Source of the DNA: Halomonas sp. ML-15
GTDB lineage: Bacteria; Pseudomonadota; Gammaproteobacteria; Pseudomonadales; Halomonadaceae
Assembly (NCBI RefSeq): GCF_014779595.1
Contig: NZ_JACXZT010000001.1
Span: 124,001 to 188,000 of the forward strand
Direction: 5' to 3'
DNA length: 64,000 bases
The translations under genes and the position numbers were made by a program. Below, piece by piece: positions 46,837 through 57,493 of this stretch. Numbering within the stretch: the first letter of the stretch is position 1; each line of letters starts with the position of its first letter. The notes under the pieces were generated by a model that worked only from the letters and a program-made list of their open reading frames with translations, was not told where the DNA came from and searched no databases.

Positions 46837-47880
46837 ATGTCCCTGCTCAGACATGCCTGCATCGTGCTGCTGATGACCCTGCTGACGCTTGGCGTCGGCA
46901 GTCAGGCCGTGGCCCAGTCGGCCGACCCCAACCGGGAGATCTCTACCTCGGTAGGGACCGCTGATTCTGACATCTGGCGACAGGTCAGAAGCGGTGAGGT
47001 CGATGCCAATTACCGTGACACGCGCCATGACTCCAACTACAACCTGATCAACGCCGCCGGTCAGACCTGGCGGGAGATTCGTAACCACTGGGTCACCCCC
47101 TTCGGCCTGATCGCCATGGGCGGGATGATCGTCATGATCGCCCTGTTCTACGTGATCTTCGGCCGCAAGAACCTCGATGAACGGCCGACCGGACGCAAGC
47201 TGTTCCGCTGGTCGGCAGTCGAGCGCACGCTGCACTGGAGCGTGGCCTCGCTGTTCATCATCCTGGCGCTGTCGGGGCTCAATATCCTCTACGGCAAGTA
47301 TGTGTTCCGGTCGCTGTTCGGCGATGCCGTGTGGGGCGCGATGATCTCGGCTTCCAAGGTCTCGCACAACTACCTGGGACCGCTGTTCGGGATCCTGCTG
47401 CTGATCATCCTGGCCAAGTTCCTGAAGCACAATCTGCCGAAGAAACACGACCTGGCCTGGTTCAAGAAAGGCGGTGGGCTGATCGGCAAGGGGCATCCCG
47501 ATGCCGGCTTCGCCAACGCCGGCGAGAAGGTCTGGTACTGGCTGCTGGCCACTGCCGGTGTGGCGGTGATCATCAGCGGCCTGGTGCTCAACTTCCCCAA
47601 CTTCGACCAGTCCCGTGACACCATGATGTGGGCCAACGTTATCCATGCGGTGGCGGCCCTCGGCCTCACCGCAGTAGCGATGGGCCATATCTATATCGGC
47701 ACGGTGGGTACCGAAGGCTCTCTGGAGGGCATGAAGACCGGCTATGTCGATGAAGCCTGGGCCAAGGAGCACCACAACCTGTGGTACGACGAGGTCAAGG
47801 ATCAGGCGGTGGATGCCGAGACCCTCGATCAGTCGACCAGCGACGGCGGTGAAAAACCGGCGCCCAGTCAGCCTGGTTAA
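46837..47880 (+). CDS. fdhC: Formate dehydrogenase cytochrome b556 subunit gamma
   Basis: Membrane diheme cytochrome b that anchors the enzyme and reduces quinone. 347 aa: an N-terminal signal-like segment (1-27), a periplasmic stretch of about 60 residues, then four to five membrane helices (about 88-112, 135-153, 177-195, 235-255 and 270-290). Candidate heme His residues are in ERTLHWSVASLF, KVSHNYLGPLFG and NVIHAVAALG. It is longer than E. coli FdnI owing to the N-terminal extension, as in Shewanella-type FdhC. TAAGGAGG lies before the ATG. Confidence 0.93.
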   Translation: MSLLRHACIVLLMTLLTLGVGSQAVAQSADPNREISTSVGTADSDIWRQVRSGEVDANYRDTRHDSNYNLINAAGQTWREIRNHWVTPFGLIAMGGMIVMIALFYVIFGRKNLDERPTGRKLFRWSAVERTLHWSVASLFIILALSGLNILYGKYVFRSLFGDAVWGAMISASKVSHNYLGPLFGILLLIILAKFLKHNLPKKHDLAWFKKGGGLIGKGHPDAGFANAGEKVWYWLLATAGVAVIISGLVLNFPNFDQSRDTMMWANVIHAVAALGLTAVAMGHIYIGTVGTEGSLEGMKTGYVDEAWAKEHHNLWYDEVKDQAVDAETLDQSTSDGGEKPAPSQPG

Positions 47881-47912
47881 CACTCCGTCTGATTAGCCCT
47901 GGCCTACCTAGA

Positions 47913-48032
47913 GCGAGGGACGCCGGCGACAGGTCGCAGAGGAGGTTCTACGCCATGGATGGCGTAGGTAGCGCCCAGGGACGGGTTCACAGCGCCTCCT
48001 CGCAGACCTGTCGGCGGATCAGTCCCGAGCGG
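47913..48032. repeat. Dispersed nested inverted-repeat element, copy A
   Basis: A 120-bp element with complementary arms folding into one long interrupted hairpin: GCGAGGGAC (47913-47921) with GTCCCGAGC (48022-48030); GACAGGTC (47928-47935) with GACCTGTC (48005-48012); GAGGAGG (47939-47945) with CCTCCTC (47995-48001); and a perfect apical stem CTACGCCAT-GG-ATGGCGTAG (47948-47967). A second copy lies at 57117-57315, with compensatory base changes in three of these helices. It follows fdhC and precedes a terminator. It is intergenic, with no coding potential evident. Confidence 0.85.
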
Positions 48033-48069: not shown

Positions 48070-48097
48070 GACACCGCCTACGGGCGGTGTCTTTTGT
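48070..48097 (+). terminator. Intrinsic terminator downstream of fdhC and repeat A
   Basis: A 9-bp perfect stem GACACCGCC/GGCGGTGTC with a TACG tetraloop, followed by TTTTGTT. It probably ends the fdh operon transcript. Confidence 0.75.
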
Positions 48098-57045: not shown

Positions 57046-57116
57046 GGCTCAAGCTCTTGCAAATGGAGCCCACAAGCTTGCCGCAGGCGCTGCCGCCCTG
57101 CAATGCCGAGAACATA

Positions 57117-57315
57117 GCGAGGGACGCCGGGGACAGATCGGAGAGGGGGTTCTATGCCATGGGTGAGGAGCATGCTTCGAACGGGCTGGCCATGGATGGC
57201 CAGCACCGGTCCTGCAAGCGGAGCAGGATGCGAGAGCGCAGCAGGGCATAGGTAGCGCCCAGGGATGGTTTACAGCGCCCCCTCGTAGATCTGTCGACGG
57301 ATCAGTCCCGAGCGG
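57117..57315. repeat. Dispersed nested inverted-repeat element, copy B (with loop insertion)
   Basis: A 199-bp relative of the element at 47913-48032. Outer arms: GCGAGGGAC (57117-57125) with GTCCCGAGC (57305-57313); GACAGATC (57132-57139) with GATCTGTC (57288-57295); GAGGGGG (57143-57149) with CCCCCTC (57278-57284); CTATGCC (57152-57158) with GGCATAG (57245-57251). The apical loop holds roughly 80 extra bases with a perfect hairpin GCTGGCCAT-GG-ATGGCCAGC (57185-57204) and a second one TCCTGC/GCAGGA (57210-57228). It occupies much of the 448-bp gene-free stretch 57046-57493 between the RutR-like gene and xdhA. Confidence 0.85.
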
Positions 57316-57401
57316 TAGGAGCAGCTGCACTCGTCTGGCCGCGATATTTTCTATTACTGAACCTTGCGCTCCTGCCCGTAATGGGCCACGCTTATTTCAA
57401 G

Positions 57402-57417
57402 TTGACCATTTGGTCAG
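57402..57417. promoter_or_regulatory. RutR-type operator upstream of xdhA
   Basis: TTGACCATTTGGTCAG matches the E. coli RutR consensus TTGACCA-NN-TGGTCAA at every specified position but the last. It lies 77 bases before the xdhA start, on the side facing the divergent RutR-like gene. TTGACC could also serve as a -35 element, which would give repression by occlusion. Confidence 0.75.
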
Positions 57418-57443
57418 AACTCGGCAACATCTCCTTGCGTCAC

Positions 57444-57470
57444 CTTTCCAGGCCAGCGCGGCCTGGAAAG
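57444..57470 (+). promoter_or_regulatory. Leader hairpin of xdhA
   Basis: An 11-bp perfect stem CTTTCCAGGCC/GGCCTGGAAAG with a five-base loop, 23 bases before the xdhA start codon and without a U-tract. In the mRNA it would sit just ahead of the ribosome binding site and could influence translation or stability. Confidence 0.5.
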
Positions 57471-57493
57471 CACAACAACGAGCGGATCCTGCG

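What the first reader, a model, noticed from the sequence alone, without database searches (positions are those of the whole stretch)
47913..48032. Dispersed nested inverted-repeat element with compensatory changes (copy A versus copy B at 57117-57315)
Two intergenic sequences 9 kb apart share the same architecture. Arm differences are compensatory: GACAGGTC/GACCTGTC versus GACAGATC/GATCTGTC (G-C to A-T); GAGGAGG/CCTCCTC versus GAGGGGG/CCCCCTC (A-T to G-C); CTACGCC/GGCGTAG versus CTATGCC/GGCATAG (C-G to T-A). Three covarying pairs in two copies are strong evidence that the folded form, as RNA or as DNA cruciform, is what is kept. This could be a family-specific mobile or structural repeat with a role in transcript ends, DNA binding or mobilisation.
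Basis: seen in the sequence. Interest (0 to 1): 0.78.

Follow-up and report, generated by a model that had tools for sequence, protein, structure and literature searches.

The report
Mobile hairpin repeats with CsrA-type loops
The two look-alike hairpin sequences are copies of a small mobile DNA repeat, present about eighty times in this genome and related to repeats known from Yersinia, whose RNA would carry two docking loops of the kind bound by the bacterial regulator CsrA.

Summary
The genome has 82 covariance-model matches; each of the 5 genomes of the genus examined (own included) has at least 52; a broader model finds the element in 46 of 274 gammaproteobacterial genomes (own included). 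The fold is real: in 86 matches from four other species 98.9% of paired cells are standard pairs, 22 of 37 pairs show compensatory double changes, and no shuffle does as well.

The constant part is a head of two hairpins with CANGGANG loops on one strand: 74 of 82 own copies have at least two, no copy has two on the other strand. That is the CsrA/RsmA-type site, and the genome encodes one CsrA.

The element is mobile: present, absent or flipped at orthologous sites, in tandem gene pairs typically about 30 nt after a stop codon. It has the head of the Yersinia YPAL/RU-2 repeat and resembles Rfam TwoAYGGAY, predicted to bind CsrA. No linked REP transposase was found.

Shown: a mobile, structure-conserved, YPAL-type family. 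Inferred: its RNA docks CsrA. Against a simple role in neighbouring mRNAs: orientation bias is weak, and copies in either orientation are equally well kept.

The parts
47912..48032 (+). Copy A, short form (core of 121 nt): long interrupted stem closing a junction with two hairpins
47917..47921 (+). Outer stem, 5' arm GGGAC (pairs with 48022-48026); flanked outside by GA opposite GA
   Evidence: columns 7-11 with 114-118
47928..47935 (+). Middle stem, 5' arm GACAGGTC (pairs with 48005-48012)
47936..47938 (+). 5' side of a 3x3 internal loop GNA (3' side 48002-48004, GNA)
   Evidence: GNA in 78 (5') and 79 (3') of 85 distinct rows from other species
47939..47945 (+). Inner stem, 5' arm GAGGAGG (pairs with 47995-48001)
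47948..47967 (+). Hairpin 1 (CTACGCCATGGATGGCGTAG); loop CATGGATG at 47954-47961 fits CANGGANG
47971..47993 (+). Hairpin 2 with conserved 3' bulge; loop CAGGGACG at 47976-47983 fits CANGGANG
48070..48096 (+). Intrinsic terminator-like hairpin and T run after copy A, conserved in all 5 genomes of the genus examined, whether or not the element is there
46837..47880 (+). Upstream gene, cytochrome b561-type subunit (PF01292); copy A starts about 30 nt after its stop codon
57116..57315 (+). Copy B, long form (200 nt)
57159..57244 (+). Extra module inside hairpin 1 of copy B, shared by other long-form copies of the genus
57185..57204 (+). Apical hairpin of the long form, GCTGGCCATGGATGGCCAGC; CANGGANG at 57191-57198
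57260..57267 (+). Loop of hairpin 2 of copy B, CAGGGATG (CANGGANG)

Best explanation
The two sequences are copies of a non-autonomous mobile repeat of the YPAL (RU-2) kind. SHOWN: it is dispersed and mobile, sits mostly between genes and often just after stop codons, and is kept as a long stem closing a junction with two hairpins, each with a CANGGANG loop, on one strand. INFERRED: when that strand is transcribed, by read-through from a neighbour or from a promoter of its own, the two GGA motifs (22 nt apart, start to start, in copy A; 69 nt in the long copy B) dock one CsrA/RsmA dimer. Many such copies would act together as a spread-out sink for CsrA, and single copies could alter the fate of RNAs that carry them. 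The stem holds the two sites in place. How the element moves is not known.
For: 82 model matches in the genome, 80 of them scored as intergenic. Covariation: 19 of 37 pairs with double changes in 27 own copies and 22 of 37 in 86 copies of four other species, 0 of 500 shuffles for these counts. Strand asymmetry: G-U 86 against A-C 13 cells. At least two CANGGANG on the sense strand in 74 of 82 own copies, on the other strand in 0 of 82, and on the sense strand in 83 of 86 copies of other species. Sample chosen by hairpin 2 only: of 82 sites in the 80 listed loci, 66 lie inside a match of the own-genome model R1 on the same strand; of the 73 with enough flank, 55 have CANGGANG within 32 nt upstream (chance 155 of 16000 windows) and 53 a closing stem (0 of 1439 mispartnered). 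One CsrA match in this genome and a match in 58 of 58 genomes searched, own included; best solved relatives are CsrA/RsmA proteins, E 4.9e-30. No RsmY, RsmZ or CsrB over its cut-off in the 37 genomes of the own family searched. TwoAYGGAY was already predicted to bind CsrA (PMC4333381, passages). Presence, absence and flips at orthologous sites. Same head as YPAL. Several Ysr224 copies (a related repeat) are reported as expressed in Yersinia ruckeri (PMC12112432, passage).
Against: No expression or binding data for this organism were available. Sense bias is weak in the genus (44 to 27 distinct tandem sites, p 0.057) and not seen in a class-wide sample (12 to 24, p 0.065, crude gene calls). Copies whose upstream neighbour runs the other way keep two loops (62 of 65, three of them unclassified sites, against 90 of 97) and pairs as well as sense copies, which a role inside neighbouring mRNAs does not predict. 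The one annotated RNA of this kind, Ysr224, is modelled on the strand opposite to the GGA loops. CsrA was found in every genome searched, also in those without the element, so its presence does not discriminate. In 46 copies from other genomes the outer stem is a near-perfect palindrome of 18-49 bp that differs from copy to copy, which points to a DNA-level process that makes or repairs the arms. The RsmY/Z/CsrB searches scored only part of the candidates (for example 50 of 283, 46 of 154 and 21 of 75 in the own genome), and sub-threshold matches exist in the own family (RsmZ 39 bits in G008, cut-off 44; RsmY 34.7 bits in G007, cut-off 57), so such sRNAs may simply be divergent.
Confidence: 0.45

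Rival explanations
1. The fold and the loops are kept because they are needed for moving: a transposase or other enzyme recognises the folded single strand (DNA), and only well-folded copies spread. RNA and CsrA play no part.
For: Mobility is shown by presence/absence and flips; fold and loops are equally kept in both orientations; orientation bias is weak or not seen; two clear flank duplications, 37 bp in L227 and 25 bp in L247.
Against: The known ssDNA REP transposase family is not linked (not found in two element-rich genomes). The loops match an RNA-protein consensus and the protein is present. Differences between copies at orthologous sites favour G-U over A-C (14 to 4 in sense, 21 to 6 in antisense sites), although conversion between copies could mimic this.
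Confidence: 0.3
2. A generic 3' UTR hairpin: like ERIC or REP, the element protects or destabilises the upstream mRNA through its stem (RNase III, RNase E, exonuclease block); the loops are passengers.
For: Median distance from the stop codon is 29 nt in sense and 36 nt in antisense tandem sites; copy A sits between a stop codon and a terminator; YPAL is reported as transcribed together with upstream genes and perhaps affecting RNA stability (review PMC2229807, passages).
Against: A stem-only function does not explain near-invariant GGA loops while stems change, nor their conservation across the class.
Confidence: 0.2
3. No present function: selfish repeat; arm complementarity is kept by DNA-level repair of palindromes (template switching) and by conversion between copies.
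For: Near-perfect long variable stems in other taxa (1250 of 1292 stem pairs Watson-Crick in 46 copies; copies were kept only if the stem scored at least 12); flips and short/long replacement at orthologous sites suggest turnover.
Against: Arm repair would remove the conserved mismatched internal loop (GNA opposite GNA in 78 and 79 of 85 rows) and would not give G-U over A-C on one strand. In 46 pairs of copies at orthologous sites with the same orientation, the element is 92.7% identical, the rest of the intergenic DNA 85.1%, and the element is the more conserved in 43 of 46, though recent insertion or conversion could also do that.
Confidence: 0.15

Closest known systems
YPAL / RU-2, Yersinia palindromic sequence (about 168 bp)
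   Same: Same head: GGA hairpin, CTCGAGC-type linker, second GGA hairpin, TTTACGGCG, in the RU-2 sequence printed in PMC2759123 Table 1b (passages; compared by eye). The model built from own-genome copies alone finds the Yersinia similis copy (34.1 bits, E 6.2e-5) and a Pectobacterium copy (45 bits). Dispersed, intergenic, filled and empty sites between related species (review PMC2229807, passages).
   Different: The stem sequence is unrelated; conserved internal loops in the stem; a long form with an extra module; distribution across the class, beyond the Yersinia and Erwinia named in the review. The primary YPAL paper (De Gregorio 2006) was not read; it is known here only through the review.
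TwoAYGGAY RNA (Rfam RF01731, clan CL00106)
   Same: Two GGA hairpins on a poorly conserved external stem; CsrA binding predicted; tandem G-A pairs noted (PMC4333381, passages). A distant relative of our element, L051, passes its gathering score (43.5 against 43) at the same place.
   Different: Own-genome copies do not match it (0 matches at E<=0.01 with 39 of 174 candidates scored; none listed for copy A or 20 other own loci); hairpin 2 here has a 3' bulge and mostly loop AGGGAY, not AYGGAY. Described as an RNA, not as a mobile repeat, in the passages I saw.
Ysr224 (Rfam RF02770)
   Same: Its consensus reads, by eye, as the reverse complement of the same head (alignment; up to 47 bits on the opposite strand).
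   Different: The matches that overlap an assigned copy are on the antisense strand; all matches are below the gathering score of 70.
CsrB, RsmY, RsmZ sponge RNAs
   Same: Several GGA hairpins that bind CsrA/RsmA dimers.
   Different: Separate sRNA genes rather than dispersed repeats (recalled); none over cut-off in the own family.
REP/BIME elements with RAYT, ERIC
   Same: Palindromic intergenic repeats near gene ends (PMC3733652, abstract and passages).
   Different: No RAYT link; larger, branched, with conserved loops.

Membership tests
YPAL / RU-2 | Conserved head sequence and layout | tested here: met
   Read against the printed RU-2 sequence; model R1 finds the Yersinia similis and Pectobacterium copies
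YPAL / RU-2 | Many dispersed intergenic copies, empty sites in relatives | tested here: met
   82 matches, 80 scored intergenic; copy A site empty in G001 and G002, filled in G003 and G004
YPAL / RU-2 | Target-site duplications of variable length, targets at or next to dyad symmetry | tested here: inconclusive
   Two clear cases: 37 bp overlapping a terminator (L227) and 25 bp including a stop codon (L247). Over all 162 copies flank repeats are barely above control (score >=20: 6 of 162 against 29 of 1606)
YPAL / RU-2 | Length about 168 bp with internal inverted repeats | tested here: inconclusive
   Core 121 nt; some copies appear to have outer arms of about 25 nt more on each side, but ends were not fixed by clean empty sites
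TwoAYGGAY (RF01731) | Score over Rfam gathering threshold | tested here: not met
   No match in the own genome at E<=0.01 (39 of 174 candidates scored); met at the place of our element by the distant relative L051
TwoAYGGAY (RF01731) | Two AYGGAY loops | tested here: not met
   Hairpin 1 mostly AUGGAU; hairpin 2 mostly AGGGAY
CsrA-binding RNA | Hairpin loops with ANGGA-type core, in pairs | tested here: met
   CANGGANG at least twice in 74 of 82 own copies and 83 of 86 others; 0 of 82 own copies have two on the antisense strand
CsrA-binding RNA | Binding of CsrA/RsmA in vitro or in vivo | not testable with these tools
   needs EMSA or cross-linking
REP/RAYT system | RAYT (Y1_Tnp) in genomes that carry the repeat | tested here: not met
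   28 of 58 genomes have Y1_Tnp at E<=1e-5; none in G002 and G004, which have 62 (scoring cap) and 52 element matches
CsrB / RsmY / RsmZ | Rfam gathering score | tested here: not met
   RsmY and RsmZ over cut-off in 1 of 58 genomes each (G056, not of the own family), CsrB in 0 of 58; only part of the candidates was scored

The most novel reading that the evidence does not exclude
A class-wide family of mobile elements carries, as its conserved cargo, a structured RNA that docks one CsrA/RsmA dimer. By spreading, it turns the genome into a distributed CsrA sink and brings new genes under CsrA control; in genomes of this family, where no CsrB/RsmY/RsmZ passed its cut-off, it may be the main antagonist. 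YPAL, TwoAYGGAY and Ysr224 would be parts of this one family.
Probability: 0.25. Interest if true: 0.85.

Novelty: new variant of a known kind. Interest (0 to 1): 0.6.

Why it matters
It brings together a mobile repeat (YPAL), an Rfam RNA of unknown function (TwoAYGGAY) and a listed sRNA (Ysr224) by one conserved head, extends it across Gammaproteobacteria, and gives a concrete, cheap test (does CsrA bind it?) of an open question: why bacterial genomes keep dozens of structured intergenic repeats. If CsrA binds, repeats become part of a global regulatory circuit rather than junk or mRNA caps.

Tried and rejected
Rejected: (1) chance inverted repeats, by 82 matches and covariation controls. (2) A known Rfam family at gathering score: none in the window; Ysr224 and sX7 weak. 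(3) REP/RAYT. (4) An intrinsic terminator as the general role: terminator-like site in the 120 nt after the element in 2 of 58 sites. (5) A cis role read only in sense: orientation bias weak and conservation equal in both orientations. (6) Systematic target-site duplications: barely above control overall. (7) Plasmid or phage carriage: copy A matched 1 plasmid record, a 1.8-Mb Halomonas replicon whose stretch has no listed genes, and no phage record; two plasmid searches with heads from other taxa gave 1 partial match and none; an E. coli search with the Yersinia similis copy gave 5 of 5426 genomes.

Limits: the class sample used crude longest-ORF calls, and 20 of its 83 sites fell inside such ORFs and were left out of the orientation counts. 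The 80 copies of G001-G004 were picked from the top of the listings, 20 per genome. In one search, six of the 41 multi-copy clusters were left out by me (neighbouring double copies or relics); of the 35 used, 13 hold copies of both orientations by gene calls (recounted). Flank alignments of 12 such pairs show flipped flanks on at least one side in seven; in one of these (L013/L186) a remnant of an older copy lies beside the new one, which speaks for new insertion rather than inversion. The flank identities first printed included flipped pairs, whose flanks cannot align, so I recomputed them on same-orientation pairs and use only those. In one search, pairs below 80% identity and pairs of opposite orientation were dropped, and three sites without a clear upstream gene (L087, L099, L185) were counted as antisense. 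Alignments A2, A4 and A5 were fitted to the model and lean towards its structure; A1 was not. The lists of the genome search are capped (at most 62 scored per genome, 13), so copy counts are lower bounds.

Full report
Observation. Copy A (47912-48032) and copy B (57116-57315) are as described. The three compensatory differences are present, and each falls on a pair that changes on both sides in the larger own-genome set (columns 23/99, 33/89 and 42/55). Both copies fold better than all 200 shuffles. The finding is therefore confirmed, and it is a sample of a family.

Copy number. A BLAST-type search with copy A gave 43 matches in the own genome (40 of 91 candidates scored). A covariance model R1 of 27 own copies gave 82 matches at E<=0.1 (150 of 5112 candidates scored). 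A search with the copy B region gave 18 own-genome matches at E<=1e-40, itself included, of which the 17 others are long forms with about 85 extra nt inside hairpin 1 around GGCCATGGATGGCC. Some matches are relics of about 60-70 nt with little more than the outer stem (L111, L112, L113, L128, L130).

Anatomy. From outside in: a stem with GA opposite GA, an asymmetric loop, a mismatch, a 3x3 internal loop GNA/GNA (78 and 79 of 85 rows), an inner stem, then a junction with hairpin 1 and hairpin 2. Hairpin 1 has at least four stem versions that covary while its loop stays CANGGANG in nearly all copies. Hairpin 2 has a conserved bulge on its 3' side. At least two CANGGANG motifs are present in 74 of 82 own copies, in 0 of 82 on the other strand, and in 83 of 86 copies of four other species. 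In copy A the two motifs start 22 nt apart, in copy B 69 nt.

Is the fold selected? In alignment A1, which was not fitted to a structure, 19 of 37 pairs have double changes and 99.4% of cells pair; 0 of 500 shuffles reach either, sliding the partners destroys it, and one of the five measures (further pair types) is not above the shuffles (125 of 500). In the 86 matches of other species it is 22 of 37 pairs and 98.9%, with 0 of 500 shuffles on all five measures (fitted to the model). Among the 35 pairs that are not mainly G-U, G-U cells outnumber A-C cells 86 to 13; 14 pairs have any G-U and 8 any A-C. Since a transition gives G-U on one strand and A-C on the other, this favours the GGA strand as the one that folds. 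Cells are not independent events.

Distribution. Distant relatives in the order have an unrelated stem but the same head. A second model R2, built from own and distant copies, finds it in 46 of 274 genomes of the class, own included, often in several copies (13 scored per genome). In 46 copies of other genomes that pass a GGA-GGA pattern and a stem score of 12, the outer stem is long and nearly perfect (1292 pairs: 1250 Watson-Crick, 28 G-U, 3 A-C, 11 other; median 28 bp, range 18-49), and in G146, G242 and G295 it differs between copies of one genome. By recalled taxonomy of their titles, the 80 listed are gammaproteobacterial (Marinobacter, Microbulbifer, Stenotrophomonas, Shewanella, Yersinia similis, Pectobacterium, Methylomonas and others) except one labelled only Proteobacteria. 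Of the 82 sites in them, 66 lie inside an R1 match on the same strand. Of the 73 with enough flank, 55 have CANGGANG upstream (chance 155 of 16000 windows) and 53 have a closing stem (0 of 1439 mispartnered controls).

Mobility. At the copy A site, the element is present in own, G003 and G004 as three different versions, with hairpin 2 changed from a CCC/GGG to a TAC/GTA-type stem in the latter two, and absent in G001 and G002, while the terminator that follows is kept in all five. At the copy B site, G001 has a long form in the same orientation, G002 and G003 a long form in the opposite orientation, and G004 a short form in that opposite orientation. By gene of 35 orthologous clusters hold both orientations; of 12 such pairs aligned, seven show flipped flanks on at least one side. 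Two copies have clear flank duplications, 37 bp overlapping a terminator and 25 bp including a stop codon, but flank repeats are barely enriched overall. Y1_Tnp is found in 28 of 58 genomes and not in G002 or G004, so a REP transposase is not the general motor.

Position. Of 82 own copies, 80 are intergenic by my gene caller, tandem sites 40 sense to 22 antisense. Over 97 distinct sites in five genomes (162 copies): 44 to 27 (p 0.057), upstream gene co-directional 58 to 37 (p 0.04), median distance from the stop codon 29 nt (sense) and 36 nt (antisense) in tandem sites. In the class-wide sample there is no sense bias (12 to 24 tandem, upstream 29 to 34). Orthologous comparison: in 20 sense pairs of copies 25 double-compensated, 14 G-U, 4 A-C and 13 other one-sided changes; in 23 antisense pairs 27, 21, 6 and 12 others. 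Two loops are kept in 90 of 97 sense and 62 of 65 other copies. So whatever keeps the fold does not depend on the direction of the upstream neighbour. In 46 same-orientation orthologous pairs the element is 92.7% identical against 85.1% for the rest of the intergenic DNA and 88.4% for gene ends.

Protein partner. The genome has one CsrA match, with solved CsrA/RsmA proteins up to E 4.9e-30. That CANGGANG is the RsmE/CsrA loop consensus is recalled; the A(N)GGA core is stated in PMC4066749 (passage). CsrA is found in 58 of 58 genomes, also in those without the element. No RsmY, RsmZ or CsrB passes its cut-off in the 37 genomes of the own family. Only part of the candidates was scored, and weaker matches exist (RsmZ 39 bits in G008, RsmY 34.7 bits in G007; the RsmY search also rings below cut-off in 5 of 14 control genomes).

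Known relatives. The printed Yersinia RU-2/YPAL sequence has the same head, and R1 recovers the Yersinia similis copy. YPAL counts per Yersinia genome run from 2 to 144 in one table (PMC2847712, passage). L051 passes TwoAYGGAY. Ysr224 reads as the opposite strand of the head; it is reported as a multi-copy sRNA with expressed copies in Yersinia ruckeri (PMC12112432, passage), which shows transcription of such repeats but, if its strand is right, of the strand without the GGA loops. Gardner and Eldai predicted CsrA binding for TwoAYGGAY (passages). A P. putida Rsm pull-down recovered a long palindromic intergenic region and regions next to ISPpu8 (passages); whether these are this element is untested.

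Literature check. Searches listed no paper that I could see linking YPAL with CsrA or with TwoAYGGAY; in the two papers that hold CsrA together with Ysr224 or TwoAYGGAY and are not about this link, the passages I saw are unrelated mentions. For repeats in Halomonas only one narrow search was made. The library holds only open papers, listings were partial, and the primary YPAL paper was not read.

Verdict. Classification as a YPAL-type mobile, structure-conserved repeat is well supported (about 0.9 in my judgement). CsrA docking is the best reading of the loops but is inferred, and the lack of orientation dependence is the strongest point against a plain mRNA role; it leaves a trans-acting sink or a requirement in mobilisation.

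Noticed in passing
L298-L317 and L269-L294: In other Gammaproteobacteria the outer stem is an 18-49 bp near-perfect palindrome that differs between copies of the same genome while the head is constant; how arms stay complementary is unexplained.
   Followed up: partly
own genome against G001-G004, e.g. L007/L178, L018/L213, L197/L235: Orthologous intergenic sites hold the element in opposite orientations in different species; inversion or repeated insertion into the same slot.
   Followed up: partly
window 57159-57244; G004 against G002/G003 at the copy B site: Short and long forms replace each other at one site: an apical module of about 85 nt is gained or lost inside hairpin 1.
   Followed up: partly
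Rfam RF02770 (Ysr224) against L038, L298 and others: Ysr224 matches the antisense strand of the head wherever the copy was assigned; its strand or its status as an sRNA may deserve a second look.
   Followed up: no
L005 1501-1621 and 1704-2070: A copy lies about 80 nt before the RNase P RNA gene.
   Followed up: no
L007 1199-1434 (- strand): A cobalamin riboswitch lies about 65 nt from a copy.
   Followed up: no
G019 (13 places, e.g. L063, L066, L068): A genome of the same family carries 13 TwoAYGGAY matches at E<=0.01, all below the cut-off (33.6-42.4 bits against 43): a dispersed, repeat-like set of that Rfam family.
   Followed up: no
window 57046-57493: Copy B lies between divergent genes (TetR-type regulator and a molybdopterin dehydrogenase operon), not after a stop codon.
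   Followed up: no
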